From Candidatus Gastranaerophilales bacterium (GTDB lineage: Bacteria > Cyanobacteriota > Vampirovibrionia > Gastranaerophilales > Gastranaerophilaceae): a DNA stretch of 32,286 nt. Location: the NCBI GenBank assembly GCA_944326525.1, contig CALVEG010000017.1, forward strand, positions 1 through 32,286, in the 5' to 3' direction. The position numbers and the translations under genes are program-made. Under the pieces are notes generated by a model that did no database searches, had not been told where the DNA came from, and saw nothing but the letters and a program-made list of their open reading frames with translations. Shown here piece after piece: positions 5,336 through 22,029 of this stretch (its first letter is position 1; the number at the start of each line of letters is the position of its first letter).

Positions 5336-5689
5336 ATGTTACAGAATAATCTAGGTGAAAAAATTCGTCTTTTAAGAAAATCTCAAGGGCTTACACAAGA
5401 ACAACTTGCAGAAAAAATCGGGATTGATAATAAACATCTTTCCAGAATTGAAAAAGGCAAACATATGCCGACTTATCATATACTTAAAAAGCTTGCTTTA
5501 GTTCTTAATTTTGATGTGTATGAGATTGATGATTTATCTGCAACAGATATTAAACAACCTGATAAAAATTATACAAAAGCTTTGCACATATTGAACTCTG
5601 CAAAAAATGATGCAGAAAGAAAATATTATCTTGAAGCTTTACAGATAGCACAAAAGGGATTAAAAATTGGTGCGGCAGAACAAAATTAA
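5336..5689 (+). CDS. XRE-family helix-turn-helix regulator
   Basis: The 117-aa protein has an N-terminal HTH_3 domain (about 6-62): LGEKIRLLRKSQGLTQEQLA, then NKHLSRIEKGKHMPTYHILK. The C-terminal 55 residues are helical and charged and may dimerise. The ATG at 5336 is chosen because GAGG sits 5 nt upstream; a GTG at 5330 overlaps the Shine-Dalgarno sequence. It is divergent from the zinc-ribbon operon across about 150 bp and is its likely repressor. Confidence 0.9.
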   Translation: MLQNNLGEKIRLLRKSQGLTQEQLAEKIGIDNKHLSRIEKGKHMPTYHILKKLALVLNFDVYEIDDLSATDIKQPDKNYTKALHILNSAKNDAERKYYLEALQIAQKGLKIGAAEQN

Positions 5690-5927
5690 TTTTATCATTT
5701 GTTGTTCTGCACATTAAATATAGCTGTTGTTTTAAAAATATTTCCATGCCAGTCCGCTCATTTTTCTTTCTGCAACAATTTTGCATTTTGGTACTACGTT
5801 TTTGCTATCTCTGTTAGTTCATTTTTAATGTTGCTTGCGGTTATCGTTGCAGGTATATATAAATTATCAGCAGTCGTCTAAAACTCCTGTTAAATCAGCG
5901 ATAAATCGCCAATGAGCAAATATTTAA

Positions 5928-5966
5928 AAAAGGTTGACTTCCTCGTGTATGGATTGTCAACCTTTT
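5928..5966. terminator. Hairpin terminator between convergent units
   Basis: A perfect 11-bp stem AAAAGGTTGAC (5928-5938) / GTCAACCTTTT (5956-5966) with a 17-nt loop. A-runs and T-runs on both sides suit termination in either direction. It sits 11 nt beyond the restored stop of the frameshifted gene at 5978, supporting that as the true gene end. In 5690-5927 I see no convincing gene; weak plus-strand frames there encode only a hydrophobic peptide without a ribosome-binding site. Confidence 0.7.
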
Positions 5967-5977
5967 GCATTTTGGGA

Positions 5978-6272
5978 TTAATCTTTATTTTTATTAAACT
6001 TTTCTGCTTGTTCTGTTTTATCAATTGTAGCAAGAAATTTATTAAAAGCATTTTTAATATTTTTTCTTAATAATTTGCTGTCTGAAATGCCTAAATAGTC
6101 TAAATACAGTTTTAAGCAAAATGTTTTCTTTAGCAATTGCTCTTTTCAGACCAGAGGCAAAGTTCTTATCTGCAACCTCTTCTATTCCTAAATTTAATGG
6201 AAGTAACTGTTTACGTATATTCCTTAATTTTATTATTTTCCTGTCTACTTTTACATCAACAAGTCTTGTCAT
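5978..6272 (-). pseudogene. Frameshifted last gene of the Rep cassette
   Basis: The first frame starts at an ATG with AAAGG upstream (MTRLVDVKVDRKIIKLRNIR) and runs out at a stop at 6054. A different frame stays open from about 6150 to 5978 and has better protein character (LYLDYLGISDSKLLRKNIK, ending NKNKD). The frames join if one base is removed from the A4 run in CTTAAAACTG (T4 at 6110-6113 on the plus strand), giving about 97 aa. This is a +1 frameshift: a mutation, an assembly error, or programmed shifting. The joined gene ends 11 nt before a terminator. Its product is basic and helical with no recognised family. It follows the winged-helix gene by 27 bp. Confidence 0.65.
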
Positions 6273-6299
6273 TGCTTCTATACCTTTCTGTTTTACTTT

Positions 6300-6743
6300 C
6301 TACGGCTCATCTTCTTGTATTTCTACATTATTTGATAACATAAATATAAACCCATTTCGTTGTAAGGAATACAGCTTATAATCCCATTGTTTGAAATCTT
6401 TTTCTGCCTCTATAGTTTTTTCAAAATCGTAAATTTCGTCTTCATTAATATAGACCCCATAAAAATCACCTTCTAGGTGTATTAAATCTATGAAATTTAG
6501 AGCAAATAAACTATTTATTGCTTCAATCACATCAGCTTTTGTAAAGCCGATGTAATCTGCAATATATACGATGTTAATACAGAAATAACCTTTATAAATC
6601 CACTCATGCCTGTTAGCATGTTGATATTCTGTTAGCAATCGTTCTAATACTAGGGCTGATAGACAACCGAGAGCTTTTAAAAAGCTATAACCCACCATTA
6701 AATAACCCTTTTTACGTATACGCTTAAACAAATTGGTTAACAT
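6300..6743 (-). CDS. Winged-helix protein of the Rep cassette
   Basis: This 147-aa protein has a basic N-terminus and a central winged-helix-like region (about 45-105: CINIVYIADYIGFTKADVIE, then SLFALNFIDLIHLEGDFYGV), typical of replication accessory or DnaD-like proteins of phages and plasmids. AGGAGG lies just upstream and the start overlaps the preceding gene by 7 bp, so translation is coupled. It probably helps load or regulate replication proteins; the specific family is not identified. Confidence 0.6.
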   Translation of the reverse strand: MLTNLFKRIRKKGYLMVGYSFLKALGCLSALVLERLLTEYQHANRHEWIYKGYFCINIVYIADYIGFTKADVIEAINSLFALNFIDLIHLEGDFYGVYINEDEIYDFEKTIEAEKDFKQWDYKLYSLQRNGFIFMLSNNVEIQEDEP

Positions 6744-6979
6744 CTGAATTCCTCCTTTAATATACGAAGAATAGTATCTTTCACAGAAGATGGAGAAATG
6801 CTTCTAAATTCTCGAGCCTTCTGCCGATTTTTTATAAGTTTCATGACATATTTCACACTATCAGTTTCAGCTATATGACATTCACGTATAAGATGTGCTT
6901 GTACCATTTTTAAATTATTCTGACACTTATCAAGAAGTGCATCAATTCCTAATTCCTTTATGTAACTTAATGGTTTCAT
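6737..6979 (-). CDS. Small helical protein of the Rep cassette, unknown function
   Basis: An 80-aa, mostly helical, basic protein without signal peptide or membrane segment. It overlaps the upstream Rep gene by 4 bp (ATGA) and the downstream winged-helix gene by 7 bp. GGAG lies 8 nt before the ATG. No known motif is visible. Its tight packing implies a role with the Rep protein. Confidence 0.65.
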   Translation of the reverse strand: MKPLSYIKELGIDALLDKCQNNLKMVQAHLIRECHIAETDSVKYVMKLIKNRQKAREFRSISPSSVKDTILRILKEEFRC

Positions 6980-7704
6980 TTTATAATCTCCTCGAAATTA
7001 CCTAACAAACTTTCAACTTTATCCGCAACCAAATCATAAGGATAATTAAATACATGCAATAAAGTAACCGTTTCACGCTGTGGAATGTGCAATGCTTTTC
7101 TTAATGCCTTTGCCCACTGTAAACGCCGTTCAAAACGTATAACATCTTTGTAATCTTTTTTAAAATTATCAGAGAAGCTATAATAATACCCTTTGTCATT
7201 ATTACGTTTTAGCCACATTTCATATAATTTGTCATATATGCAGATAGAATCTTTAACTGTTTTAAAAGTTGATTTAATTACCAAACTATTTTCATAACCG
7301 ACATCGTTATAATATGTCAGGATTTCATTTTTATAAGTACTGATACAGCACATTTCTCGAAAGCTTGATATAACATGTTTTAATGTATCTGTTTTAAAAT
7401 GTATATCCCTTTTTATATCTACACGTGTTAATCTCGCATTACAGAGACAATCTGTAGTTAGGCATACACCTGTATGACTTTTAATAATCGGCACAAGTCG
7501 TTCAATATCTGTTACTGATAAGATACTACCAGCTTTATCAGGGGTTTTAAGAACTTTTGCACTTACACGCAAACACAATTCATCACTCTTACGATCTATC
7601 CACGCATGTATAGAATCAAATTTTGAAGTTGGGATTAATGATTTTGCACAATAAGTGTCTTTTTCTGCTCTTACCATAAATGTGTCGATATCGTTCGTAA
7701 TCAT
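6976..7704 (-). CDS. Rep-like protein (phage/plasmid replication initiator, CRI/pII-like)
   Basis: This 242-aa protein shows a pattern like filamentous-phage CRI/gene II and related plasmid replication initiators: LTRVDIKRDIHF (near 93-104), a central SICIYDKLYEMW stretch (near 150-161), and IRFERRLQW (near 190-198). In these families Arg/Asp and Tyr-Asp-Lys segments form the rolling-circle nicking domain, but no textbook HUH motif is seen, so the call is by resemblance only. GGAG precedes the ATG. It follows the 46-aa gene by 21 bp and overlaps the 80-aa gene by 4 bp. Alternatively it may be a replication-associated DNA-binding protein without nicking activity. Confidence 0.5.
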   Translation of the reverse strand: MITNDIDTFMVRAEKDTYCAKSLIPTSKFDSIHAWIDRKSDELCLRVSAKVLKTPDKAGSILSVTDIERLVPIIKSHTGVCLTTDCLCNARLTRVDIKRDIHFKTDTLKHVISSFREMCCISTYKNEILTYYNDVGYENSLVIKSTFKTVKDSICIYDKLYEMWLKRNNDKGYYYSFSDNFKKDYKDVIRFERRLQWAKALRKALHIPQRETVTLLHVFNYPYDLVADKVESLLGNFEEIIK

Positions 7705-7725
7705 TGTTTAAGTCTCCTTTCCTTT

Positions 7726-7866
7726 TTAGCTATTACTATTTGCAAACCATTCTATGAGTACAATGAAGAAACTTTTCAGATTGTTTTCAATCTCTTCCGC
7801 TGTTTCATCTGAAATTGTTCTTTCTGCAAAATCTAGAAATGTTTTTTTATTTACATCTTTTTTCAT
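7726..7866 (-). CDS. 46-aa acidic small protein heading the Rep cassette
   Basis: This short gene reads MKKDVNKKTFLDFAERTISD and ends FIVLIEWFANSNS. AGGAG lies about 8 nt before the ATG, and the stop is 21 bp before the Rep gene on the same strand, so it is the likely first gene of the operon. The sequence is amphipathic and acidic in the middle. Function unknown; copy-control proteins often occupy this position in rolling-circle replicons (general knowledge, not shown here). Confidence 0.65.
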   Translation of the reverse strand: MKKDVNKKTFLDFAERTISDETAEEIENNLKSFFIVLIEWFANSNS

Positions 7867-8002
7867 CTTATTTTCTCCTGTATTGTTCCGTAATTTGTTT
7901 TACTTAGCCGTATACGTTTTATGTCTTAGGTCGTAAAATGCAGAATTGATAAACATTTCCGGGAAAAATTAAAAAAATAACAATATTTTTTAGCCAATAT
8001 GG

Positions 8003-8031
8003 TTGCAAAATAATAAATTTATGTTTATAAT
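8003..8031 (+). promoter_or_regulatory. Sigma70-type promoter for a leaderless mRNA
   Basis: TTGCAA (8003-8008), a 17-nt spacer and a perfect TATAAT (8026-8031). The ATG of the zinc-ribbon gene is at 8038, 6 nt past the -10 box, exactly where transcription should start. No Shine-Dalgarno sequence precedes the ATG, so the mRNA is predicted to be leaderless. Confidence 0.75.
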
Positions 8032-8037
8032 CAAATT

Positions 8038-8562
8038 ATGAGCGATAAAAACAACCCCCAAAAAAATAATCCTCTTTGCCCACAATGTGATGGAAGAGCA
8101 ATTAAATATGGTTCTCGTAATAATAAACAACGTTATAGATGTAAAAGTTGCAAGCACACTTTCTATGAGCCTGATACAATGGATTATAAATATACACGAA
8201 ATACCAAACGTATACTTTCGCTTTTGTTTAATATACTTGAAAATGATTTTTTTAATGCAAATGACTTAGAAACAGCATTACATCCAACAGAAAAATATTA
8301 TAAGCTAGCAAGAAAAGTACAATTTAATACTAAATGCATAGAAGAACAGTCGAACAAAAAAGATATAAGAATTAGTTGTTATAACGCAAAACTGTTAATA
8401 TGTCAGGATGATAAAAATATAACTTTTATACAAATACCTGTTTATAATCGTCAAAATTCTCCTGAAAATGAACGAAAAATTACTATATATGATCAGAAAA
8501 TGAATGCAGAATATAATAAAAAATGGAATAATCCATTGGTAAAAACTAAAAATAAAAAATAA
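8038..8562 (+). CDS. InsA/transposase-type zinc-ribbon protein without transposase
   Basis: The 174-aa protein begins with an InsA-type zinc ribbon: C14-x2-C17 and C35-x2-C38 around GSRNNKQRYRCKSCKHTF, as found at the N-terminus of IS1 InsA and related DNA-binding proteins. The rest (about 50-174) is charged, low in complexity and matches nothing I know. No InsB-like DDE domain or terminal inverted repeats lie nearby, so this is not an intact insertion sequence. It is divergent from the Rep cassette and could be its regulator. Its start coincides with the predicted transcription start. Confidence 0.75.
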   Translation: MSDKNNPQKNNPLCPQCDGRAIKYGSRNNKQRYRCKSCKHTFYEPDTMDYKYTRNTKRILSLLFNILENDFFNANDLETALHPTEKYYKLARKVQFNTKCIEEQSNKKDIRISCYNAKLLICQDDKNITFIQIPVYNRQNSPENERKITIYDQKMNAEYNKKWNNPLVKTKNKK

Positions 8563-8721: not shown

Positions 8722-10215
8722 TTAGTATTTTATTCTACTATCAACCTCACTGGGGTAAATTTTTTCAGAATCAGCCTTTTCAGCTATGTAGCAGAAGGGC
8801 TTTTTATATGTCCAGCTTAGTTTTCCGTCTTTTAATATACAGTTCGAAAGTAGTGATTTTAATAAATTGACTTTATTTTCATCTGACACCTGCAAATATT
8901 TGCTATAAGTGTCTTTTAAGAGTTCTAAAGTAGAAATCACTTCATCCATGAATTTTTGTTTAGTGTTATCTAATGCTTCAATTTTTGTTTTTACAAAGAT
9001 TAAACGTTTTTGACGAAGTTCATTTTCTTCTCGCCATTGGTCTGTTGTAATAATTCCGTCCAGTTTATCTTGGTAGATTGCATGAATTTCATGCCGGAGC
9101 TTTTCAGCTTCAAAAGTTAATCTTGCCAGACTTTCATTTTGAAACCCCTCCTCTTGTTTATTCAACTCCTTTATAACTTCTAAAATTCGATTACACAAAT
9201 CCTCATCCAACTGAACAGCTTTTACCGCTTCTCCAAGCTGTTCCAACAACTGCTTTTCATTATAATATTTATGATTTCTACACTTTTCTTTGCCGTGTGC
9301 CCAAGTACACCTGTAATAAATATATTTTTCTTTCTTTATTTCTCCAACAATAGAACAACCACAATCGCCACATGTAATAAAATTTCCTAATAAAAATTTA
9401 TGCTTGCGATAAAGCGGTTTGTTATCTTTCTTAAAAGCCGTCTGTACTTTTGAAAATAATTCATTCGAGATAATAGGCTCATGAATTCCATCCATTAACT
9501 GCCCTCTAAAGCGAAAAAGGCCTATGTAAAAAGGGTTCTTTAACATATCCTCTAAAGCCCCGCAGGTAATTTTAGGAGAATAAGGACGGTATACATATCC
9601 CTCATTTAAAAGTTGCGCAGCGGTATCTTTTATAGAAATTTCACCGCTTGAATATATTTCAAAAGCTCTCTTGATAAAAGGTGCCGTAGCCGGATTAATT
9701 TCTATAATACTTTTTCCTTTTTCGTTTCTAACATTTTTATAACCGTAAGGTGCACGGTTTGGAAAAATACCTTCCTCTGCTTTTTCTTTAAGACCTTTTC
9801 GGGTTTCTTCTCTAAGATTATCTATGAAATTCTTTGCCATTAAAACCTTCAAACCATGAACAAATTTTTGATGAGAAGAAGCTTCATCATTAATAATTTC
9901 ATGTTCTTTTACAAAATGAAGTTCAAAATTGCCTTCATCAATCAAACCATAATCTGACGGATTTCTATAAAGCCTGTCCGTTTTTTCAACAAGAATAGTC
10001 TTTACATCCTTAGATTGTTTGAGAAATTTAACCATTGCATTGAATTCTTTCCGCCCTGATTTTTTGGCAGTTTCCGACTCTGTAAACTCTTTCACAATTT
10101 GAATATTATTATTCCGCGCATATTCTTGTAACAGCTTTACTTGCGCAGGTATAGAAAACCCTTGTCTTTCTTGTTCATCTGAAGATACTCTTGCGTATAA
10201 AACAGCTTTTTTCAA
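8722..10215 (-). CDS. Large serine recombinase (site-specific integrase) 2
   Basis: This 497-aa protein has a resolvase domain with catalytic Ser11 in YARVSS, TDRLYRN, a Recombinase domain (about 150-260), a zinc ribbon (C-x2-C in CGDCGC near 283, second pair CTWAHGKEKC near 304) and a coiled-coil C-terminus ending in a WTYKKPFCYIAE segment. It is homologous over its full length to the recombinase at 231-1733. The start codon is TTG (10213-10215) with AAGGAG about 9 nt upstream. It probably integrates element B. Its 3' end faces the junction with element A, mirroring recombinase 1 facing the tRNA. Confidence 0.95.
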   Translation of the reverse strand: MKKAVLYARVSSDEQERQGFSIPAQVKLLQEYARNNNIQIVKEFTESETAKKSGRKEFNAMVKFLKQSKDVKTILVEKTDRLYRNPSDYGLIDEGNFELHFVKEHEIINDEASSHQKFVHGLKVLMAKNFIDNLREETRKGLKEKAEEGIFPNRAPYGYKNVRNEKGKSIIEINPATAPFIKRAFEIYSSGEISIKDTAAQLLNEGYVYRPYSPKITCGALEDMLKNPFYIGLFRFRGQLMDGIHEPIISNELFSKVQTAFKKDNKPLYRKHKFLLGNFITCGDCGCSIVGEIKKEKYIYYRCTWAHGKEKCRNHKYYNEKQLLEQLGEAVKAVQLDEDLCNRILEVIKELNKQEEGFQNESLARLTFEAEKLRHEIHAIYQDKLDGIITTDQWREENELRQKRLIFVKTKIEALDNTKQKFMDEVISTLELLKDTYSKYLQVSDENKVNLLKSLLSNCILKDGKLSWTYKKPFCYIAEKADSEKIYPSEVDSRIKY

Positions 10216-11459: not shown

Positions 11460-11630
11460 ATGAAGAATTTTTTAAAAGAAAAAATCTTTTGGCAAAAATA
11501 TGCTAATGAAGAGCTTTCGAAAAATGATCTTTTCGAAATTGACCAAAACTTGCTTAATTTTGCAAAAGCTCTTTTAAAAATTCAAATGGAATTAAACTTA
11601 AAAAAAGGGACGAAAAATGAAAGAAAATAA
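11460..11630 (+). CDS. 56-aa small protein preceding the primase
   Basis: Reads MKNFLKEKIFWQKYANEELS, continues with a helical acidic/hydrophobic middle, and ends LKKGTKNERK. It overlaps the primase start (11617) by 14 bp in another frame, a classic coupling arrangement. There is no ribosome-binding site at its own start; a -10-like box 6 nt upstream suggests a leaderless mRNA. No known family; perhaps a translational leader or small replication accessory. Confidence 0.55.
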   Translation: MKNFLKEKIFWQKYANEELSKNDLFEIDQNLLNFAKALLKIQMELNLKKGTKNERK

Positions 11631-12117
11631 GAAGAATGTTTTAAAAGATATGCTTCGGCAAGGATTGAAAATTATAGAATTATATGGAATTAACAATCAA
11701 GGATACTGTACCTGTTATAGAGGTACAAAATGCAGTTCAGCAGGTAAACATCCTGTTCATAAAGAATGGAAAAATTCTTACATAAGAACAGAAAAAGAGT
11801 TAGAAGATTTAATTGATAAAAAACCACATGCAAACTTTGGAATCATTACAGGAAGCGGACTTGTAGTAATAGATGTTGATGCAAAATCAGGCGGACTGGA
11901 AACACTTAAAAGTATAAAAGCACTACTACCTTTAACCTTAACAATTAAAACAGGGGGAGGGGGCTACCATTTCTATTATAAGACCGACCAACATATAAGC
12001 AACCGCACTAACATGTTAAAAGGGATTGATATTAGAGGGGATGGGGGATTTGTTGTAGCTCCAACAAGTAAACATAAGTCCGGTGAATATTACACAATTA
12101 TTGAGGAAGGAGAATAA
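11617..12117 (+). CDS. Prim-Pol (AEP) primase-polymerase domain protein
   Basis: This 166-aa protein is a bifunctional DNA primase/polymerase N-terminal domain. It shows the CTCYRGTKCSSAGKHP signature (C31, C33, C39), catalytic acidic motif VIDVDAK (Asp86, Asp88), the GGYHFYY motif (His118) and DIRGDGGFVVAPTS. AEP primases start DNA synthesis on plasmids and phages. Here the domain stands alone, with the PriCT and helicase parts encoded by the next gene 1 bp downstream, so the usual fused protein is split. An AGGGA-like site precedes the ATG, which lies inside the 56-aa gene. It probably primes element B replication at the nearby candidate origin. Confidence 0.9.
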   Translation: MKENKKNVLKDMLRQGLKIIELYGINNQGYCTCYRGTKCSSAGKHPVHKEWKNSYIRTEKELEDLIDKKPHANFGIITGSGLVVIDVDAKSGGLETLKSIKALLPLTLTIKTGGGGYHFYYKTDQHISNRTNMLKGIDIRGDGGFVVAPTSKHKSGEYYTIIEEGE

Positions 12118-12118
12118 A

Positions 12119-14008
12119 ATGAAAATTGCAGATATTGATCCAAAAATGCTCCAAATTATTACTAAAAATGTATCAGAAAAAGTATCACAAGCTGCGCATA
12201 ATTCAAACAAAGATATAGAAGAAATTTGCGAAGGAGAGCGTCATAGTAGATTAGTAAGCATATGCGGAGCTTTATCGCGGCAAGGGCTAAGTTTGGAATC
12301 TCTTACCAAAGCTTTAATTAATATAAATAATACCTCCTGCAAGCCCGCACTTCAAGAATTTGAAGTGCGCTCTATTGCACAAAGTATTCATAAATATAAA
12401 AACTTTGAACGTAATCCCGCACTCCATAAAAATAAACCAATAAATAAAATTACTAGACTTCTTTTCTCCAATAAAGGGAATTCAAATGAACGCAATACCC
12501 AAATAGCCTCATTAATCATAAAGGATTTAGAGCAAAAAGGGATCTTTATTAAAACGGACTTAGATGAATTCTATTATTTTGATAATTCACAAAAGGAGCT
12601 TCTTTCTCTTAAAAAAGAAAAAAACAATTATAAAAAATTGATGATGAGATATAAAATTAATTTCAAAATGCCCGCATATGATTTTATATATCATGCAATA
12701 ACTGTACATTGTTATGAAAACGGCACAAAAACATCTGTGTATAAGTATGCACATTATGATAAATATAAAAATATTTTGTATATAAAATGCGGAAAAAACC
12801 AAATATTGAAAATTGATTTAAATTCCGTAACTAAATGCGATAATGGAATTGACGGCGTGCTGTTTTCAGACTTGATAGATGTTGAAGAATTTGAATATAT
12901 TGAGAATCTTGATAACAATGATTATATTAACAACCTAATGATTTCATTATGTAATTTTAATGAAGTTGCATTAGATTCCGCAACACAAAAAATTCTTGCT
13001 AAAGCATATTTTATAGCCTTATTCATGCCAGAATTTATGAATACAAAACCGATATTAACAATTGTAGGGACAAAAGGAAGTGCAAAAACAACTTTACTTA
13101 AAGCATTCACTAAAGTTCTGTACGGCGAAAAGCATAATGTTGCATTAATGCCCAACAAACCTGACGATTTAGATATACTGGTAGCAAATTCCCATTTTTT
13201 AGGTATAGATAATCTTGATACACACAAAGAAGGCTTAAATGATAAACTTGCAGTTTACGCAACCGGCGGACTAATAAAAAAAAGAAAGCTTTACACCGAT
13301 TCAGAAGTATATGAAGCTGATCTTAATGCTTATATCGGGATTAGTACAAGAGCACTATGTTTTAAACGGGATGATATTTTACAAAGACTTATACTGCTTG
13401 AATTAAGTCCGATAACTGGAGGGTTTATTGATGAAAATGAACTAATGAAACCGCTATTACAATATCGAAATAATATTTTGACACAAGCAATTAATGAAAT
13501 TCAAAAAATAATGCGAATTATTAACAGTCATAAATATAAAAACTACCGCAGCGCATTTAGAATGGCCGACTTTGCAAATTTTTTTACATGTTTATTAGAT
13601 GATTATAAGGTCGCTGAATCTCATTTAAAAATAATGACAAAACATCAACGAGAAGTTTCCATAGATAATGACTTAATAATAATTCATCTAGCTAGATTTA
13701 CAAATATAGCTGAACATAAATTTTATAGCGCATATGACATTTATAATATCATTATTGAACATGCCAGACCACATCTAGAAAAAATTTATATAAAAAGTGA
13801 CTTCGAAAAAAGTTATGAAACGGTCTTAGCATTTGCAAAACGTCTCAATAATATTAAAGATGATATTCAAGAATTTATAAAAATCGAAACTAAAAAAGGA
13901 CGTGCAAACCAAACTTTGTATAGCTTTTCAAAAGGAGAAAGGTTTGAAGAAATTAACGCTATTGCAGGTTATATAAAAGTTATAGGCTGTAATGATTGTC
14001 CATTTTAA
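12119..14008 (+). CDS. PriCT-helicase protein (replicative superfamily 3/AAA-like ATPase)
   Basis: The 629-aa protein starts at an ATG with GGAAGGAG upstream, 1 bp after the primase stop; a longer in-frame reading from 12083 has no start signal. Residues about 36-95 are a PriCT-1 domain (GERHSRLVSICGALSRQG). A central linker leads to an ATPase (about 300-460) with Walker A GTKGSAKTT near 318-326 and Walker B FLGIDNLD near 360, as in plasmid and phage primase-helicases. The C-terminal 170 residues are helical. It should unwind the origin and act with the separate Prim-Pol. It ends at a terminator followed by the candidate origin. Confidence 0.88.
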   Translation: MKIADIDPKMLQIITKNVSEKVSQAAHNSNKDIEEICEGERHSRLVSICGALSRQGLSLESLTKALININNTSCKPALQEFEVRSIAQSIHKYKNFERNPALHKNKPINKITRLLFSNKGNSNERNTQIASLIIKDLEQKGIFIKTDLDEFYYFDNSQKELLSLKKEKNNYKKLMMRYKINFKMPAYDFIYHAITVHCYENGTKTSVYKYAHYDKYKNILYIKCGKNQILKIDLNSVTKCDNGIDGVLFSDLIDVEEFEYIENLDNNDYINNLMISLCNFNEVALDSATQKILAKAYFIALFMPEFMNTKPILTIVGTKGSAKTTLLKAFTKVLYGEKHNVALMPNKPDDLDILVANSHFLGIDNLDTHKEGLNDKLAVYATGGLIKKRKLYTDSEVYEADLNAYIGISTRALCFKRDDILQRLILLELSPITGGFIDENELMKPLLQYRNNILTQAINEIQKIMRIINSHKYKNYRSAFRMADFANFFTCLLDDYKVAESHLKIMTKHQREVSIDNDLIIIHLARFTNIAEHKFYSAYDIYNIIIEHARPHLEKIYIKSDFEKSYETVLAFAKRLNNIKDDIQEFIKIETKKGRANQTLYSFSKGERFEEINAIAGYIKVIGCNDCPF

Positions 14009-14021
14009 CTCTTTAAATTAC

Positions 14022-14046
14022 GGGAGCCTTTTTTCTTAAGGCTTCC
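14022..14046 (+). terminator. Terminator after the helicase gene
   Basis: GGGAGCC (14022-14028) / GGCTTCC (14040-14046) with one G-T pair and an 11-nt loop, followed by TTTAATAAAATT. It lies 13 nt past the stop. Confidence 0.7.
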
Positions 14047-14129
14047 TTTAATAAAATTAAAATAGTTAGGTAGTTTTAAAAAATATTTTTTAATATATTT
14101 TTTACTATTTTAATTTATGTATATTTATC

Positions 14130-14246
14130 TTAACCAACTTAACCAACGTGTATACTTACATTTTTTTTCTCTTAAAAAAGCGATACTGTGTGTTTTTGTT
14201 CCCTAACCCAACCCCACCCCACCACCCCTAAAGGCGAAGCGGGGGT
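14130..14246. other. Candidate replication origin: iterons, G-quadruplex motif and hairpin
   Basis: Two perfect tandem 9-mers TTAACCAAC (14130-14138, 14139-14147) are followed directly by GTGTATACTTACATTTTT (14148-14165). A C-rich tract at 14201-14228 then gives, on the minus strand, five runs of three or four G separated by 1-4 nt, a strong G-quadruplex motif in an otherwise very AT-rich stretch. ACCCC (14224-14228) pairs with GGGGT (14242-14246). Very AT-rich DNA lies on both sides (14050-14130, 14250-14460), and the primase-helicase pair lies immediately upstream. Iterons, an AT-rich unwinding region and replication genes together are the usual make-up of plasmid origins. No protein-binding evidence exists. 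Confidence 0.5.
14148..14165 (+). repeat. 18-bp direct repeat, copy 1
   Basis: GTGTATACTTACATTTTT occurs here and again, perfectly, at 18225-18242. This copy abuts the tandem iterons of the candidate origin. The core GTATAC is palindromic. Confidence 0.7.
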
Positions 14247-14476
14247 AACGATAAATATTTTTTTTAAATCAATCCTTAGGGAAAAGTTATAAAGATTCAA
14301 AGTTTAACTTTATCAATATATTTTTAATTTTTATTACTCCGATAAAAAGTCCTGTAATATATAAATATTACCAGTTTATTTTTCAAAACATAATAAATCG
14401 TATTCATTTATACTGTTTTACGCTTTAAAAACAACCCTATTCTTAAATTATATTAATTAGCTTTATTACAGGCACT

Positions 14477-14632
14477 AAAAACCTCCTTATTCCTGATAAC
14501 TCATGAATTATACTAGCAGATCAGTTCCAATTTTAAAGGCACGCATAAAGCCTGCCGGAGGTTCCGCCTTGAAAATTTTCACTTATCTGCTTTGGGTAAA
14601 TACATGAGTTACAGGAATTGAAGGAGGTTTTT
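14477..14632 (+). promoter_or_regulatory. Large nested hairpin that sequesters the Shine-Dalgarno sequence of the 90-aa gene
   Basis: The outer arms 14477-14505 and 14603-14632 pair over 28 bp with only two small bulges (AAAAACCTCCTT with AAGGAGGTTTTT, ATTCCTG with CAGGAAT, TAACTCATG with CATGAGTTA). A second stem AGCAGAT (14515-14521) / ATCTGCT (14585-14591) and a third AATTTTAAAGGC (14529-14540) / GCCTTGAAAATT (14566-14577, one mismatch) nest inside, with a GC-richer tip. The 3' outer arm contains AAGGAGG, the ribosome-binding site of the gene starting at 14636. If transcribed, the structure would hide it. As DNA it could instead be a cruciform used in replication or recombination. Confidence 0.7.
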
Positions 14633-14635
14633 AAT

Positions 14636-14908
14636 ATGCCTGAAAATAATAATTTTAATTTATTACGTTTTGTATACGGGGAACTATTTTTAAACGCATA
14701 TAACAAAACAATCGGAACAATTATCATTGAAACTTGGAAAGCTGAATCTTGGTATAAGATTTTAACTTGGCTCAATAACAGGCAATATATTTCAGCTTTA
14801 AAAATTGAGCGCATAAGTTCAAAACAAAGGTGCATAAGCTATAGGTTTAATGAACAAAATCTTCTCTACCCCTACTATATACAATACTTAAAAAGACTAA
14901 TAAGTTGA
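14636..14908 (+). CDS. 90-aa protein under a hairpin-masked ribosome-binding site
   Basis: The ATG at 14636 has AAGGAGG 8 nt upstream, one of the strongest Shine-Dalgarno sequences in the window, located in the 3' arm of a long hairpin. The protein (MPENNNFNLLRFVYGELFLN at the start) is mixed alpha/beta in character, Tyr/Ile-rich and basic at the C-terminus, with no signal peptide or membrane helix. An overlapping minus-strand frame (14533-14835) has no comparable start signal and is rejected. No family recognised. It lies between the candidate origin and the ArdC-type gene; copy control or anti-restriction are only guesses. Confidence 0.6.
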   Translation: MPENNNFNLLRFVYGELFLNAYNKTIGTIIIETWKAESWYKILTWLNNRQYISALKIERISSKQRCISYRFNEQNLLYPYYIQYLKRLIS

Positions 14909-15039
14909 GTATACTTTCATCTTAACGCCAGATTCGATTTTAAGACAGACTAAATTTCACAACAATCAAAATCTATTGAATTATTTTTTCACCTGCCTTA
15001 AATGCTCATACAAAAGTTCTAAAACAGAAAGGATTTCTT

Positions 15040-15873
15040 ATGAAAAAAGATTACAAAGAAAAAATTACTAATCAAATTATTAAAACACTTGAACAAGGTC
15101 AAATCCCTTGGATCTCACCTTTTGAAAAACAAATTATACCTATGAATTACTTAACAAAAAAAACTTACAACGGACTTAACCTCATATCCTTGTGGGTAAC
15201 CGCGATGCAAGCAGGCTACACCAGCAATTACTGGATAGGATTTCAACAAGCAAACCAACTTGGAGGAAAAATTAAGAAAGGTGAAAAAGGAACTCCTATA
15301 ACAATTTGTTGTCCTGCTAAATTTGAAAACAAGAATGAAAATATAGAAGAGGATGAAAAAATCCGGTGTTACTATAAAACCGATTATGTATTTAATCTTT
15401 ACTCTCAAGTTGAAGGTATTACTTTTAAAACTGAATCATCAATACAATATAGACCTCTTAAAGAATTTGAAACGCTAATAGCGCGAACAGGCATGAAAAT
15501 AAGACATCAAGGGGAAAGAGCATATTATTCTCTAAAAGAGGATTTTATTAATATGCCGTTCCGAAGCAAGTTTAAGACACAGACAGCATACTATCAGACC
15601 TTAGCGCATGAACTTGTCCATTCAACAATGAAAGCCGACAGGTGCAGCCGAAACCTTTTAAAAGACAATCCGCAGAACGGCAGAGCGTTAGAGGAGTTAA
15701 CGGCAGAAATAGGAGCGGCATATTTACTTGCGGAATTTGGGCTAAAAGCTGACATGCAGAACTCGACAGCCTATATTCAAAGTTGGATCAAAGAACTTAA
15801 GAATGACACTAATTATATATTTAAAGCCTCTACCTTTGCCAAGGAATCAGTTAAATGGCTTACTAGTCAATAG
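15040..15873 (+). CDS. ArdC-type ssDNA-binding/zincin-like protein
   Basis: The 277-aa protein has an ArdC N-terminal domain (about 3-125: ITNQIIKTLEQGQIPWISPF, then KTYNGLNLI and KKGEKGTPI) and a C-terminal zincin-like peptidase domain with HELVH (about 190) and a downstream Glu in EELTAEIGAAYL. ArdC proteins bind ssDNA and protect incoming plasmid DNA from restriction. AAAGGA lies about 7 nt before the ATG. The C-terminal half (15550-15760) has visibly more G+C than the rest. It converges on the XRE gene with an 11-bp overlap. It probably shields element B during transfer, though no conjugation genes are present. Confidence 0.88.
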   Translation: MKKDYKEKITNQIIKTLEQGQIPWISPFEKQIIPMNYLTKKTYNGLNLISLWVTAMQAGYTSNYWIGFQQANQLGGKIKKGEKGTPITICCPAKFENKNENIEEDEKIRCYYKTDYVFNLYSQVEGITFKTESSIQYRPLKEFETLIARTGMKIRHQGERAYYSLKEDFINMPFRSKFKTQTAYYQTLAHELVHSTMKADRCSRNLLKDNPQNGRALEELTAEIGAAYLLAEFGLKADMQNSTAYIQSWIKELKNDTNYIFKASTFAKESVKWLTSQ

Positions 15874-16321: not shown

Positions 16322-17017
16322 ATGTTTAATGAAACTAATGAATCTAATGCTTTAATGCCGCAAAATCAAAATTTACCAGAACAATTTAAGATAGAGACCA
16401 GTAAAACGGACTTAATTATCCCAAATTTAAAAATTATACAAAGTCTTTCTAATGAGCTAACCCCAAATAATCCAAAATATAATCCTGATGTAAAAGCCGG
16501 AGATATTTACGATTCTGTTACTAAAACTATATTTACAAATGCTAAAGCTATTGTATGTGGAATGCTGAAATACTATGCAGAATGGACTCCTGAGGTCAGA
16601 GGGCATTTAGTAAACAAGTACTTAGAAAACTCTGAAATAGTCCAAAATGCAATCAATGCCGCACATGCCGGTAATGGCAAAACCACAAATATAAAATTAA
16701 AAACACCTGCCGGAAATGATTTACAAGAAAACTACGGTGCAGTTCTTGTCATAAAAAATGGAAATGGAATGATTCTTCCGGAAAAATTCACTTTTTCAAA
16801 AACCAGTTTTATGGTTGGTAAAGAATTGAACACGATTATAGCAGTATATCAAAATGGTGGTATTCCAGAATTTGATCTTAGCACGACACTTGTCACAAAT
16901 CAAAAAGGTTCATGGTATAAACCTTGTTTCAAATTCAGTGGGTATACAGTTGATAGACAGATTATTGATCTTGCTACAAGATTACACGCAATCGCTGAAG
17001 AAATTATCTTAAGCTAA
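16322..17017 (+). CDS. Phage-type DNA-metabolism protein, possibly ssDNA-binding
   Basis: The 231-aa protein starts at the ATG with AAGGAG 5 nt upstream; an in-frame upstream start at 16295 is disfavoured. It resembles phage early proteins found near replication and recombination genes, with DLIIPNLKIIQSLSNELTPN, then DVKAGDIYDSVTKTIF (about 30-75), and a C-terminal WYKPCFKFSGY segment. These proteins are usually of unknown function, sometimes proposed to bind ssDNA. It is first in an operon with a membrane WYL-like protein and two secreted proteins. A short near-repeat of its start region (CTAATGCCGCAATGC, TTTAATGCCGCAAAATC) overlaps the leader. Confidence 0.6.
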   Translation: MFNETNESNALMPQNQNLPEQFKIETSKTDLIIPNLKIIQSLSNELTPNNPKYNPDVKAGDIYDSVTKTIFTNAKAIVCGMLKYYAEWTPEVRGHLVNKYLENSEIVQNAINAAHAGNGKTTNIKLKTPAGNDLQENYGAVLVIKNGNGMILPEKFTFSKTSFMVGKELNTIIAVYQNGGIPEFDLSTTLVTNQKGSWYKPCFKFSGYTVDRQIIDLATRLHAIAEEIILS

Positions 17018-17032
17018 AGGAACGTCTATCTT

Positions 17033-17419
17033 ATGGAATATTTTATATTTTACCTGTTTTTACTTGCTCTAATACCATTTTTATTAGGTAAGAAAAAAGT
17101 AAATACTAAAAAACAACAAGCTAACTATAAAAACGAATCATATACTTTAGAAGAAATATTCAACATAGCAATAGCAAAAAGTTATAGGATAAAAATTCTA
17201 TATGAAACATCTCCGCTTTTCAGAGAAAATGAAATTACCGAAAGAATAATACAACCTCTTGAAATGAAGTACGGCAGAGACATATTAGATAATGACCTGA
17301 TTAAAAATTCTGAATATGGCAAAGATAAAATATATATCAAAGCATTTTGTGAACTCCGTCAAGCAGAAAGAACTTTCAGGCTTGACCGATTAAAAATTTT
17401 AGAAATACTAAAAGCATAA
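17033..17419 (+). CDS. Membrane-anchored WYL-domain-like protein
   Basis: The 128-aa protein has one N-terminal transmembrane helix (about 3-18), a basic linker, and a WYL-like domain (about 38-126): YTLEEIFNIAIAKSYRIKIL, IIQPLEMKYG, IYIKAFCELRQAERTFRLDR. WYL domains are ligand-sensing folds that normally follow a helix-turn-helix in regulators of defence and stress genes. Here the HTH is replaced by a membrane anchor. AAGGA lies about 12 nt upstream of the ATG. It sits in an operon with secreted proteins, suggesting signalling at the membrane rather than DNA binding. Confidence 0.62.
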   Translation: MEYFIFYLFLLALIPFLLGKKKVNTKKQQANYKNESYTLEEIFNIAIAKSYRIKILYETSPLFRENEITERIIQPLEMKYGRDILDNDLIKNSEYGKDKIYIKAFCELRQAERTFRLDRLKILEILKA

Positions 17420-17431
17420 GGAGTTTTTTGT

Positions 17432-17830
17432 ATGAAAAAGTATATTGTCTTATTTTTACTACTCACATGTATTTCACCGGCATTTGCAAATACATTTTTT
17501 GAACCTCAATGGAACGAGTTTTGTCCAAGCCAATATGCAGATCTTGATTTAGAAAAAGATTATATTCTTGCAGAAAAGAAATATTGGCAGCAACGCAAAA
17601 AAGATTTTAACAGAAAATTACGCTACTGTAATGTTTTAGCAGATGATAAGCGCGGAGCATGCTATGATAACCTTAGACTTGTTGAAGGAAATGCAACCTC
17701 AACACATCTGGCTGAAGTGAGAATTAAACAACAAGAATATGCAAATGCAGCAAGCATGACAAACACTTTCAATTATCAAATGAATACTATGAATAACTTA
17801 CTAAATAATCGCCCATATTACAGATATTAG
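17432..17830 (+). CDS. Small secreted protein with signal peptide
   Basis: A 132-aa protein with a signal peptide ending SPAFA-NTFF (about residue 20). The mature part is charged, with FCPSQYADLDLEKDYILAEK, three cysteines that could form disulfides, and an Asn-rich tail. AAGGAG lies 9 nt before the ATG. Third gene of the 16322 operon, 12 bp after the WYL-like gene. No known family. Confidence 0.75.
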   Translation: MKKYIVLFLLLTCISPAFANTFFEPQWNEFCPSQYADLDLEKDYILAEKKYWQQRKKDFNRKLRYCNVLADDKRGACYDNLRLVEGNATSTHLAEVRIKQQEYANAASMTNTFNYQMNTMNNLLNNRPYYRY

Positions 17831-17838
17831 GAGAACAT

Positions 17839-18132
17839 ATGAAAATATTGTTAACAATTGTCTTTTTATCATTATTTATTGCAACAAGCGCTTCTGCTTC
17901 TTCATACACCGACATAAATTCTGGAACAACATATTATGATCATGGATATAATATTAGCGGTTCTGACGGCTCTTTTTATACTCGAGATCATGCCGGTAAT
18001 ATATACGGTTCTGACGTTACCTATACAAAAGTAGGTGATAATTATTATGGATCAGATGGACAAAACTATACAAAAATCGGCAAAGATTACTTTGATAACA
18101 ATGGTTCTCGAATTATGAAAATTCTTGATTAA
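17839..18132 (+). CDS. Small secreted Gly/Tyr-rich repeat protein
   Basis: A 97-aa protein with a signal peptide ending ATSASA (about residue 20). The mature part has short repeats built on YGSDxxxYTKxGxxYYGSDG, suggestive of a small beta structure. GGAG lies 6 nt before the ATG and the gene starts 8 bp past its neighbour, so it belongs to the same operon. Together with the 132-aa protein it may modify the cell envelope, for example as an exclusion or attachment factor; this is inference. Confidence 0.72.
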   Translation: MKILLTIVFLSLFIATSASASSYTDINSGTTYYDHGYNISGSDGSFYTRDHAGNIYGSDVTYTKVGDNYYGSDGQNYTKIGKDYFDNNGSRIMKILD

Positions 18133-18179
18133 CTTTTTTAGATAACGAGTATCCGACAGGCATGTGATAGATTTTTATA

Positions 18180-18222: not shown

Positions 18223-18396
18223 ATGTGTATACTTACATTTTTCATAAGACCATTCAAAAAACATCCCGCTTTTATAGGCAAAAACATGGAAAAATACTAT
18301 ACGGATATAAATTCAAACAAAGCTCCAAGAGTCATTAAAAGTCAACTTAAACTGATTAAAGCTCTTGCAAAAATGACACACAATCAAAGCAATTAA
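18223..18396 (+). CDS. Possible 36-57-aa small gene (doubtful)
   Basis: An open frame from ATG 18223 (57 aa) or ATG 18286 (36 aa) encodes a basic protein containing MEKYYTDINSNKAPRVIKSQ and ending MTHNQSN. Neither start has a ribosome-binding site. The composition from 18286 on looks protein-like. It ends 1 bp before the convergent nuclease-NTPase gene. It may be a remnant at the end of element B. Confidence 0.28.
   Translation: MCILTFFIRPFKKHPAFIGKNMEKYYTDINSNKAPRVIKSQLKLIKALAKMTHNQSN
18225..18242 (+). repeat. 18-bp direct repeat, copy 2
   Basis: Perfect second copy of GTGTATACTTACATTTTT (first at 14148-14165). The flanks differ. It lies past the end of the plus-strand operon, so the pair brackets 4.1 kb from the candidate origin to the end of the secreted proteins. 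Confidence 0.7.
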
Positions 18397-18397
18397 A

Positions 18398-20818
18398 TTA
18401 TTTTAAAACGAATTCTTGTAGCAAGGAACAAAGTTCAAGCTGATGTTTGTATTCGTCATTTGTACTAATTTGAATGTATTTTTGATCTTCGGCAATACAA
18501 TATTCAACAAATGCTGATATAACTTCTTTTGGAAAAGATATATAATTATCACTAGTTAATTCTTTAATTTGATAAAAATAATCATTTACTAATATTGGAG
18601 TGCGCAATGCCATATTAAACAAATATACATTTGAATGTGTAGCAAGGTTAAAATGTTCAGTTCCGCACGGATTCAAACAAATTCTATCTGCACAGTTTAT
18701 ATCAGATACACTCGCATCAAGACATCCTATAAGACCATATTCTAAAAACTCTTGAAGACACTGTTTTATACACGTTTCATTAAGCCCCAAACTATAAAAA
18801 AAGTTATATACATCATCAATACTTATGAAAACTTCATTCGAAGTATTTTTTAAAAGGGAATTTTTATATTTTAAAAAGGACAGTATCCTTAGTTTTAGTA
18901 GTGGTGTTGCATAATTTTCTGGATTTGATGTAAATAAATTTAGAATATAATTGTTACTTCCTTGATCAAAAATGTTACACTTATCCACAATTATAGCCTT
19001 CTCAATATTCCTTAGGCCTATAACTGATTTTTCAGAAAATGTACTGCTAAACAAATTTTCCGGAGTTATTACCGGTGATGTCATTATTGAACGTGACAAT
19101 AATAAGCATTTTCGGACTGAATAATTCGTCAGCTTACCAATAATTTTTGCTGTAAACTCAGTATTTATAAATGTTTCCTGAATATGACTTACAAATTTGT
19201 TTAGTTCTTTAATATTAAGCTTTATACCTGATTTAAAAAAATATTTGCTTTTATCGCTATTCCATTTTTCTTCTTGTTCTATCTCTTTTATTTTATTTTT
19301 CATATATTCTAAACGGCTTTGAATAATTTCCTTTGTTGGAGGAGCCGGAAGATATAAAACAGTTGTCACAAAGCTTTGCATAGGACCAGACTTTGAATGA
19401 ACCCAAATAGTTTTATCAGTTATCGGACAAAGTGTAAAGCTTAAAACTTTATCACGTATAGCTTGAGCATATTGAAAAACTTCATCCTGAACAGATTTTT
19501 CATGATGATCTAGGTTATCAAAAACTATACAAGGAACCCGTTTTCTTGAAGATACAACATGTCGAAGAATTTTAATCAAATATTCAAACTTATTTTCTCT
19601 TTCTTTTTCTAGAAATTCACCAAATCTTATATCAAAAGCATATCTGTCATTTTCATATAAACACTTAAAGGTTGCAGTTTTAAATCTATAATAGTCACTG
19701 TTATAAATTCCTTTTAAATCGTTAAAATCCGGTTCTCCATGATTTTTACGAAATAATTGTTTATGTATTTGTTCAATTAATCTTGACGTAATCCATTCTG
19801 GAAAATTTAAATTTCCCGGACTGACACCAATATCAACATTTAAAATTAGGCATTTTTTCTTAAGCGCAGGTTCTAAAACTATATTAAAAAATCTTTTTAT
19901 ATAAGTTGTCTTTCCAGAACCTTTATTACCGATAATTAATACCGTTCTGCCGCTTTTTGTTTCAATTGTCTCTTCAATTTCTTTAGAAAGTTGATTTGTT
20001 TTTGTATCTATTTTATCAATATCGGCTATTAAATTTTCAGAAATTGATCTTAAAGTGGCATCAGCAGATTGACTTTCCTTCGATTCGACAAAACATTTTT
20101 CTAGCATTTCGCTATCATCTTCATCAGTAATCTTGTCAAAAAATTTTTTAAAAACACTCTCAATGTCATGAGCCAAAGGCGACCTAGGCACAAGAATAGA
20201 CTTTTTGGAATAAGGCAGCTTTAAAACTTTTGGAGGTATTCCGCCTTTACCGGCTTCTGCGGATTGTATTTTTATTTTCAGGTTCTCTGATAATATCCCA
20301 TTTTTAGAGAATAATTCATAAAATTTTTCAAAATTATTTTCTATTGACTCAAGGTTCGGAAAAACAATAGCTTTACCCTCCGGCCATTCTACTCCGTCAG
20401 TCCTTATTCCCAAAAATCCTATCCAAGTAGTACCATTTGTGACAACAGTATTACCAACACTTTTATTGATAGCATAGTTTCTTGCCTGTTCAATTGCTTT
20501 CAATGCTTTTTTAAGTGCCGGACCGGAAATATTATAAGAATTAAGAGATTTATCGCACAAATCCCATAATTCATTAGAGGTTTTCTTAGCTTCAATAATA
20601 AAGCAGTTTCTAGAGTTTATTTTCATCAAATAATCGATATAACCACCGTCTTCAGTATATTCTTCAGTAAAAATTTGCTTTTTATTCCAATCTAAAACTT
20701 TTACTATAATATCATCAATTAATTTTAATCTGGTATCGGCTTCAGTTATAATGGTTTGCAACAATTCTTTATCATTAAAAATTGTGTCGAAATTTTTCTT
20801 AGCATCATCAATGGACAT
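18398..20818 (-). CDS. PD-(D/E)XK nuclease-P-loop NTPase, candidate anti-phage effector
   Basis: This 806-aa protein has three parts. Residues about 1-150 resemble the HsdR-type nuclease N-terminus: GGYIDYL (Asp62) then FIIEAKK (Glu76, Lys78) form a PD-(D/E)XK site, with QARNYA and VVTNGTTWIGF after it. Residues about 285-560 are a P-loop ATPase with Walker A GNKGSGKTT (297-305) and Walker B CIVFDNLDH (Asp434). The C-terminus (about 640-760) has a winged-helix-like region. Fused nuclease-NTPases of this layout (Avs-type and others) act as single-gene phage defences. It is a lone gene with AAGGAG upstream, convergent with element B. It lacks the TPR sensor of classical Avs proteins and the SF2 helicase of HsdR, so it fits no named system I know. 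Confidence 0.75.
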   Translation of the reverse strand: MSIDDAKKNFDTIFNDKELLQTIITEADTRLKLIDDIIVKVLDWNKKQIFTEEYTEDGGYIDYLMKINSRNCFIIEAKKTSNELWDLCDKSLNSYNISGPALKKALKAIEQARNYAINKSVGNTVVTNGTTWIGFLGIRTDGVEWPEGKAIVFPNLESIENNFEKFYELFSKNGILSENLKIKIQSAEAGKGGIPPKVLKLPYSKKSILVPRSPLAHDIESVFKKFFDKITDEDDSEMLEKCFVESKESQSADATLRSISENLIADIDKIDTKTNQLSKEIEETIETKSGRTVLIIGNKGSGKTTYIKRFFNIVLEPALKKKCLILNVDIGVSPGNLNFPEWITSRLIEQIHKQLFRKNHGEPDFNDLKGIYNSDYYRFKTATFKCLYENDRYAFDIRFGEFLEKERENKFEYLIKILRHVVSSRKRVPCIVFDNLDHHEKSVQDEVFQYAQAIRDKVLSFTLCPITDKTIWVHSKSGPMQSFVTTVLYLPAPPTKEIIQSRLEYMKNKIKEIEQEEKWNSDKSKYFFKSGIKLNIKELNKFVSHIQETFINTEFTAKIIGKLTNYSVRKCLLLSRSIMTSPVITPENLFSSTFSEKSVIGLRNIEKAIIVDKCNIFDQGSNNYILNLFTSNPENYATPLLKLRILSFLKYKNSLLKNTSNEVFISIDDVYNFFYSLGLNETCIKQCLQEFLEYGLIGCLDASVSDINCADRICLNPCGTEHFNLATHSNVYLFNMALRTPILVNDYFYQIKELTSDNYISFPKEVISAFVEYCIAEDQKYIQISTNDEYKHQLELCSLLQEFVLK

Positions 20819-21204: not shown

Positions 21205-22029
21205 TTATACCGAAGGAGCAGAGCGCCAGTAGCCTCTGACTTCCGTGCCGTCGCTTCTGGTGTAAGGTCTTACATAAACCAGCCCGCCACCCCGCATACT
21301 TGCAAGTTCAAGGTCTGATTCATAAGGTATGCCGATACTTTTCAACTGCGCCATTATGGCTGATTCGTTGCCGGCATACTCATCACCCGTCATTTGTGAG
21401 ATTGCTTCCCGTGAAAAGATTTTGCCGTCGCCCGTTGCGGGATTCAGGTAGCCGGAATAGTCTACTTGATGAGGTAATACTGGCATTGGTGCGGCTCCGC
21501 CGGTTGGTTTGCCTGTTGGTTTGTTCGTAAGTGCATATATGAAACTTTCTATTATCCCTCTAAATTTTCTTTTATCAGAAGGATGTGTAATCAATTCACC
21601 ATTTCTCATTTTCATCATAACTTTTGTTGCAATTACTGCGGATTTTTCCTTATCAGATAATCTGTCAAAAGTTTTGCCGTATTCTTTTTTTATTTCATCT
21701 GCTATTTTTCGGCCTTCATTGTTGTTCCAGGAGTCCATATTCCACTCTCCATAAGGATTGTTTTTGGTTTTGAATTCATGGTATATATCGCCTATAAGAC
21801 TTCCTAAATATCCCATATTTAAGACCATATCTGCACTTCCGAATGCATGTTTAAATGCATCTGCTTCGTTATTCCAAAATTCATGTCCTTGTCTCGGGCT
21901 TGTTTCAAACCCGAATTTTTTCTGGTATTCCCAAGTTTTTCTTACCATATCATCTTTAAAATCTTCTTGTTTTTGCTTTTTGGTAACCATTTCATTGATT
22001 TTTTTAATTTCGTCATATAATTTTTTCAT
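21205..22029 (-). CDS. Toxin-like protein 1: DUF6973-like domain plus shared C-terminal module
   Basis: The 274-aa protein starts with AAAGGA upstream. Residues about 45-125 match the DUF6973 style seen in polymorphic toxins and secreted cell-wall-type proteins: NNEADAFKHAFGSADMVLN, GDIYHEF, NMDSWNNNEGRKIA, with conserved Asp/His and Asn-rich motifs. A Gly/Pro linker leads to the module of about 87 aa (188-274) beginning VDYSGYLNPATGDGKIFSRE and ending DGTEVRGYWRSAPSV, also present in the protein at 22622-24127. No signal peptide. It is divergent from a multi-pass membrane protein across 44 bp, the arrangement expected of toxin and immunity genes. The toxic activity is inferred. Confidence 0.68.
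   Translation of the reverse strand: MKKLYDEIKKINEMVTKKQKQEDFKDDMVRKTWEYQKKFGFETSPRQGHEFWNNEADAFKHAFGSADMVLNMGYLGSLIGDIYHEFKTKNNPYGEWNMDSWNNNEGRKIADEIKKEYGKTFDRLSDKEKSAVIATKVMMKMRNGELITHPSDKRKFRGIIESFIYALTNKPTGKPTGGAAPMPVLPHQVDYSGYLNPATGDGKIFSREAISQMTGDEYAGNESAIMAQLKSIGIPYESDLELASMRGGGLVYVRPYTRSDGTEVRGYWRSAPSV
21215..21467 (-). repeat. Duplicated C-terminal module, copy 1
   Basis: Collinear with 22632-22884 over 253 bp without gaps. The first 116 bp (21215-21330 versus 22632-22747) are identical; the rest differs at scattered, partly silent sites. It encodes the shared C-terminal domain and is more GC-rich than its surroundings. Confidence 0.9.

What the first reader, a model, noticed from the sequence alone, without database searches (positions are those of the whole stretch)
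14477..14632. 156-nt triple-nested hairpin that buries the strongest Shine-Dalgarno sequence in the region
The outer arms pair over 28 bp including AAAAACCTCCTT with AAGGAGGTTTTT, and two more stems nest inside. The 90-aa gene's ribosome-binding site lies wholly in the stem. This could be a translational switch, an RNA thermometer, a structured ncRNA, or a cruciform serving the nearby candidate origin. It matches no riboswitch class I recognise.
Basis: partly seen in the sequence, partly recalled or inferred. Interest (0 to 1): 0.7.

Follow-up and report, generated by a model that had tools for sequence, protein, structure and literature searches.

The report
Hairpin promoter for single-stranded DNA
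A long hairpin in a gut-bacterial mobile element probably works as a promoter that fires only while the element is single-stranded DNA, switching on a small unknown gene and an anti-restriction gene, as known for the E. coli F plasmid but here in a distant, unrelated branch of bacteria.

Summary
The hairpin is real (RNA -62 kcal/mol, z -7.8) and larger than reported: pairing runs from about 14455 to 14654, through the Shine-Dalgarno site, the start codon and about six codons of a 90-aa gene. The genome is a Candidatus Gastranaerophilales bacterium; the hairpin sits in a tRNA-integrated element.

The same hairpin precedes the same gene in four further lineages, with strong covariation (21 of 52 pairs changed on both sides; shuffles give 8.8). 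A more distant homolog has an unrelated but larger hairpin in the same place. Where the contig continues, the next gene encodes the anti-restriction protein ArdC.

The pattern fits a single-stranded-DNA promoter (Frpo/ssi type) on the minus strand better than an RNA switch. In five of five lineages an extended -10 (TGC-TAnTAT) has its last five bases unpaired, with a -35-like box 16 nt upstream in a stem. The minus strand folds more stably than the plus strand in all eight sequences, as in four F/ColIb-P9 Frpo regions. The double-stranded rightward version lacks the -10. The predicted transcript starts near 14605, leaving the Shine-Dalgarno site free.

No relaxase or coupling protein was found, so the source of single-stranded DNA is unknown. 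Nothing is shown experimentally.

The parts
14455..14654 (-). Complete hairpin, long inverted repeat; proposed functional form is the minus strand as ssDNA
   Evidence: DNA fold of the minus strand -49.1 kcal/mol, z -10.4; covariation in relatives
14477..14632 (+).
   Evidence: RNA fold -62.2, z -7.8
14532..14537 (-). -35-like box TTTAAA (TTGAAA, TTGAAT, TTGCAT, TTGCAT, TTGCGT in relatives), in paired upper stem
   Evidence: sequence
14516..14518 (-). TGC of the extended -10, invariant in five lineages; closes the internal loop
14510..14515 (-). -10 box TAGTAT (overlapping TATAAT on the minus strand at 14512-14507); last five bases unpaired in the folded minus strand
14591..14597 (-). Template-strand side of the internal loop facing the -10
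14540..14568 (.). Conserved apex GGCAC...CTGCCGGAGGTnCCGCC, function unknown
   Evidence: alignment A1
14605..14605 (+). Approximate predicted transcription start (inferred from the -10 position and pairing)
   Evidence: inference
14621..14627 (+). Shine-Dalgarno site AAGGAGG
   Evidence: sequence
14636..14908 (+). 90-aa gene of unknown function; no Pfam, NCBIfam or PADLOC family, no PHROG better than E 0.06
   Evidence: homologs
15040..15873 (+). ArdC-type anti-restriction protein
   Evidence: Pfam ArdcN E 2.5e-31, MPTase-PolyVal E 1.9e-38
11617..14008 (+). Prim-Pol primase and PriCT_1/ATPase replication genes upstream
8722..10215 (-). Large serine recombinase at the element's left end; in four relatives it lies directly beside a tRNA gene
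   Evidence: comparison with relatives

Best explanation
The hairpin is a single-stranded-DNA promoter of the Frpo/ssi kind. When the minus strand of the element is single-stranded (for instance just after conjugative entry), it folds on itself. The paired upper stem presents a -35 box and the internal loop presents an extended -10 whose -11 to -7 bases are already open. Host RNA polymerase starts at about 14605 on the right arm and transcribes the 90-aa gene and probably ArdC. This mRNA holds only the right arm, so its ribosome-binding site is free. Once the complementary strand is made the hairpin is gone, and the rightward double-stranded sequence has no usable -10. In addition (inferred), read-through transcripts from double-stranded DNA carry both arms and bury their own ribosome-binding site, so expression is locked to the single-stranded phase. 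Shown here: pairing and its conservation, positions of the promoter motifs, strand bias, gene context. Inferred: polymerase binding, start site, the single-stranded phase, the role of the genes.
For: Covariation: 21 of 52 pairs changed on both sides against 8.8 in shuffles (0/500) and 2-6 in slid controls. Minus-strand DNA folds of all five lineages leave the same five -10 bases unpaired next to a paired TGC. Sigma70-like score on the non-template arm: Fisher chi-square 33.7, df 12; the other three arm/strand readings give 12.5-17.9. The divergent homolog G076 has an unrelated hairpin sequence yet TTGCGT-16-TACAAT with a bulge in the -10. The minus strand is more stable than the plus strand in 8/8 sequences under DNA and RNA parameters, as in four F and ColIb-P9 Frpo regions. 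The rightward double-stranded -10 is absent in the aligned right arms. The hairpin model R1 matches only at the seven 90-aa loci in 383 genomes. ArdC follows. Tailed-phage homologs of the gene, which would enter as dsDNA, lack a hairpin over the start codon. Published model: PMC9849209, PMC11541004.
Against: No relaxase (PF03432, PF03389) or VirD4 coupling protein (PF02534) in eight genomes, so no route to ssDNA is demonstrated; other relaxase families were not searched. The -35 boxes are only 3-5 of 6 matches, and the sigma factor preferences of these bacteria are assumed to be E. coli-like. Single-lineage promoter scores are significant alone only in the window and G006. Summed over lineages, wobble counts differ little (36 favouring minus, 26 favouring plus). 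The lineages share ancestry, so tests across them are not independent. The conserved GC-rich apex is unexplained.
Confidence: 0.6

Rival explanations
1. RNA-level control: the mRNA from an upstream promoter folds and hides the Shine-Dalgarno site and start codon; a signal, a protein, heat or RNase III cleavage opens it, or it simply silences read-through transcripts as reported for IS10/IS50 transposase mRNA (from memory).
For: Shine-Dalgarno site, ATG and first codons are paired in all lineages, up to about codon 25 in G076; pairing covaries.
Against: No conserved promoter upstream of the hairpin; the plus strand, which has the mRNA sequence, is the less stable strand in 8/8 sequences; does not explain the invariant unpaired bases on the left arm that match an extended -10 on the minus strand. 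Stability (-62 to -139 kcal/mol) is far beyond what a thermometer could melt.
Confidence: 0.2
2. Single-strand origin: RNA polymerase or a primase uses the folded minus strand to make a primer for second-strand synthesis; gene expression is secondary.
For: Same folded-ssDNA logic; Frpo itself also makes primer RNA, and F and many rolling-circle plasmids use an RNA-polymerase-recognised sso (PMC4595007). Primase genes lie directly upstream.
Against: Position exactly over the start of the 90-aa gene, and one-to-one association with that gene, are not needed for an origin. The two roles are compatible.
Confidence: 0.1
3. Double-stranded DNA site: cruciform or binding site for replication or recombination proteins.
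For: Next to replication genes and to a candidate origin-like intergenic region.
Against: A protein-binding repeat need not keep covarying pairs along the whole stem; sequence changes freely while pairing stays.
Confidence: 0.06
4. Structured minus-strand RNA: a leftward transcript through the hairpin, or a normal double-stranded leftward promoter whose -35/-10 happen to lie in the left arm.
For: Explains minus-strand stability and, for the second form, the promoter motifs.
Against: Leftward there is only the 3' end of the replication gene on the other strand, and in G226 that gene is missing while the hairpin is kept; no reason for the internal loop to coincide with the -10.
Confidence: 0.04

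Closest known systems
Frpo1/Frpo2 of plasmid F and the related ssi promoters of ColIb-P9
   Same: Long hairpin formed by the strand that is template for the downstream genes; that strand folds more stably than its complement; paired apex and an unpaired patch on the non-template arm; precedes establishment and anti-restriction genes
   Different: No blastn similarity of the hairpin region to any plasmid record; smaller (about 200-280 versus about 350 nt); overlaps the Shine-Dalgarno site and coding region, whereas the Frpo2 hairpin ends upstream of ssb; host is Vampirovibrionota; no conjugation genes found
Structure-based Frpo-like candidates in leading regions (Samuel et al. 2024, PMC11541004)
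   Same: Found by the same criteria: hairpin plus -35/-10 upstream of anti-defence genes
   Different: Those lie in recognised conjugative elements; here there is additional covariation and strand-bias evidence, but no oriT
RNA-polymerase-recognised single-strand origins of rolling-circle plasmids (sso)
   Same: ssDNA hairpin read by RNA polymerase
   Different: sso makes a primer; here a gene start is built into the hairpin
IS10/IS50 transposase mRNA fold-back
   Same: Inverted repeat hides the ribosome-binding site in read-through transcripts (from memory)
   Different: No transposase; conserved minus-strand promoter motifs

Membership tests
ssDNA promoter (Frpo/ssi kind) | Hairpin in the strand that is template for the downstream gene | tested here: met
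   Minus strand folds at z -10.4, conserved in six lineages
ssDNA promoter (Frpo/ssi kind) | -35 and -10 boxes on the non-template arm, reconstituted by folding | tested here: met
   Combined score significant only for that arm; placement conserved; -35 weak
ssDNA promoter (Frpo/ssi kind) | Inactive as rightward promoter in double-stranded form | tested here: met
   Right-arm sequence lacks a -10 at the aligned place; sequence only, activity not measured
ssDNA promoter (Frpo/ssi kind) | Upstream of establishment or anti-defence genes | tested here: met
   ArdC is the gene after the 90-aa gene
ssDNA promoter (Frpo/ssi kind) | Located in the leading region of an element transferred as ssDNA (oriT, relaxase) | tested here: inconclusive
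   Two relaxase families and VirD4 absent from eight genomes; other relaxases and oriT not searched
ssDNA promoter (Frpo/ssi kind) | RNA polymerase starts transcription on the ssDNA | not testable with these tools
   Needs in vitro transcription
Frpo sequence family | Sequence similarity to F/ColIb-P9 Frpo | tested here: not met
   No blastn match of window 14300-15000 in the plasmid collection, which holds F and ColIb-P9
Known riboswitch, thermometer or other RNA family | Match to an Rfam model | tested here: not met
   Only a tRNA matches in the window

The most novel reading that the evidence does not exclude
One hairpin acts as a double lock: as folded ssDNA it is the only promoter for an anti-defence operon, and as folded RNA it silences any transcript made from double-stranded DNA, so the 90-aa protein is made only in the minutes after entry. 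It would be a non-homologous, probably convergently evolved ssDNA promoter in Vampirovibrionota, marking the 90-aa family as an anti-defence or establishment protein.
Probability: 0.3. Interest if true: 0.8.

Novelty: new variant of a known kind. Interest (0 to 1): 0.62.

Why it matters
The characterised ssDNA promoters met in the literature read here come from plasmids F and ColIb-P9. A sequence-unrelated one in uncultured gut Gastranaerophilales would suggest that the trick evolved more than once. It would also give evolutionary signatures (covarying stem, unpaired -10 on one arm, stability bias to the template strand) with which others can be found in genomes, imply that these elements pass through a single-stranded stage although no conjugation genes were found for them, and point to a new family of candidate anti-defence proteins.

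Tried and rejected
Rfam search: only a tRNA. DNA similarity in phage and plasmid records: none. Scan of viral contigs for the apical motif CTGCCGGAGGTnCCGCC: 55 hits, GC-rich chance matches without the hairpin. Viral-contig protein search: none. RNA thermometer rejected on stability. MITE or second copy in the genome rejected: single locus. Other ArdC genes in relatives: no comparable hairpin over their start. Relaxase and coupling-protein searches negative. AlphaFold model of the 90-aa protein was low confidence (pLDDT 67) with no fold match at E below 0.001. The distant, mostly longer homologs in phage-like elements have no hairpin over the start; several have a different inverted repeat farther upstream, not pursued.

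Full report
OBSERVATION. The hairpin is real. The 156 nt fold at -62.2 kcal/mol as RNA, against -30.0 +/- 4.1 for shuffles. Folded as DNA, 14455-14665 has z -9.8 on the plus strand and -10.4 on the minus strand. It is a single copy in its genome and matches no Rfam family.

SETTING. The two records that match by protein are titled Candidatus Gastranaerophilales. The hairpin lies in an integrated element. At the left is a large serine recombinase (8722-10215). In relatives G010, G007, G006 and G251 it sits directly beside a tRNA, and that tRNA matches the one at window position 1. Then come a 332-aa unknown, Prim-Pol and PriCT_1 replication genes, a 630-nt intergenic region ending in the hairpin, the 90-aa gene and ArdC.

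CONSERVATION. A protein search of 383 family genomes found close homologs in G007 and G010 (98-99% identity), G006 (67%), G251 and G226 (58%) and G100 (54%); an order-level search added G076 from another family (43%). All have a long hairpin over the start of the gene. For the first seven, 52 consensus pairs have 21 with changes on both sides, against 8.8 in shuffles, and sliding the partner by one to three columns drops this to 2-6. A covariance model of the core finds only the seven loci with the 90-aa gene in 383 genomes. The G076 hairpin has a different, branched apex and pairs about 25 codons of the gene. More distant homologs (20-40% identity, most with longer reading frames) include three loci that were checked and carry phage genes; they lack the hairpin over the start codon.

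WHICH STRAND, WHICH MOLECULE. Three observations point to the minus strand as DNA. First, on the minus strand the non-template arm reads, in the order window, G006, G251, G226, G100: TTTAAA, TTGAAA, TTGAAT, TTGCAT, TTGCAT, then 16 nt ending in TGC, then TAGTAT, TACTAT, TAATAT, TACTAT, TATTAT. G076 has TTGCGT-16-TACAAT. In all five aligned lineages the DNA fold leaves the last five bases of the -10 unpaired while the TGC is paired; in E. coli open complexes melting starts at -11 (general knowledge). In G076 the -10 is interrupted by a three-base bulge instead. Second, a simple sigma70 score against dinucleotide shuffles is significant when combined over lineages only for this arm and strand (chi-square 33.7, df 12, against 12.5 to 17.9 for the other three); the lineages are related, so this overstates independence. 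Third, the minus strand is more stable than the plus strand in 8 of 8 sequences under both energy models (six lineages, one-sided sign test 1/64). The same bias holds for four Frpo regions of plasmids F and ColIb-P9 used as positive control, where the template strand is more stable by 9 to 18 kcal/mol as DNA. Overall wobble counts are only weakly biased (36 against 26), with G076 the clearest case (13 against 2).

MECHANISM. Published work shows that F-plasmid Frpo1 and Frpo2 fold as ssDNA into hairpins that rebuild -35 and -10 boxes, are needed for early expression of leading genes in recipients and are thought to switch off when the second strand is made (PMC9849209). Frpo-like candidates recognised by structure precede anti-defence genes in many conjugative elements (PMC11541004). 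The hairpin here has the same anatomy. The predicted start, near 14605, gives a leader of about 30 nt with the Shine-Dalgarno site free. In double-stranded DNA the rightward sequence keeps a -35-like box but no -10. A transcript from farther upstream would carry both arms and bury its own ribosome-binding site; that second lock is inference. No conserved upstream promoter was found.

WEAK POINTS. A single-stranded stage is not shown. PF03432 and PF03389 relaxases and PF02534 coupling proteins are absent from the eight genomes. Other relaxase families, oriT and natural transformation were not examined. Promoter motifs are judged by E. coli preferences. The conserved apex is unexplained. The function of the 90-aa protein is unknown, and its model is of low confidence.

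VERDICT. Most likely a new, sequence-unrelated variant of the known ssDNA-promoter kind (0.6); an RNA-level read-through silencer or switch is the main rival (0.2).

Noticed in passing
window 14148-14163 and 18225-18240: Two exact copies of GTGTATACTTACATTT flank the hairpin-to-97-aa-gene module; the 10-bp core is kept in G007 and G010. Possibly an operator or origin repeat.
   Followed up: partly
window 14200-14245: C-rich stretch CCCTAACCCAACCCCACCCCACCACCCC followed by GGCGAAGCGGGGG in the AT-rich intergenic region; candidate origin or oriT.
   Followed up: no
window 14021-14050: GGGAGCC...GGCTTCC hairpin with T-run after the replication gene, a likely terminator that would separate it from the 90-aa gene.
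   Followed up: no
L023, L024, L025, L026, L029 upstream of the gene: Distant homologs of the 90-aa gene have another conserved inverted repeat (for example TTGTTACAGTTCCTAACAAC...GTTGTTAAGAACTGTAACAA) in the intergenic region before the gene, which in those checked is divergent from the replication genes; origin-like.
   Followed up: partly
window 231-8562: A second element with its own serine recombinase lies between the tRNA and this element, apparently in tandem.
   Followed up: partly
window 18398-20818: 806-aa P-loop ATPase on the minus strand, weak resemblance to STAND-type and Sll1717-family ATPases; present in G010 but not at the same place in G007.
   Followed up: partly
window 21205-22029 and 22622-24127: Two proteins share a nearly identical C-terminal stretch (VDYSGYLNPATGDGKIFSREAISQMTGDEY...), which looks like a repeated polymorphic C-terminal domain.
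   Followed up: no
L137 (G226) 16960-18159: In G226 the replication genes are lost and the 332-aa gene is shortened, but the hairpin, 90-aa gene and ArdC are kept.
   Followed up: yes
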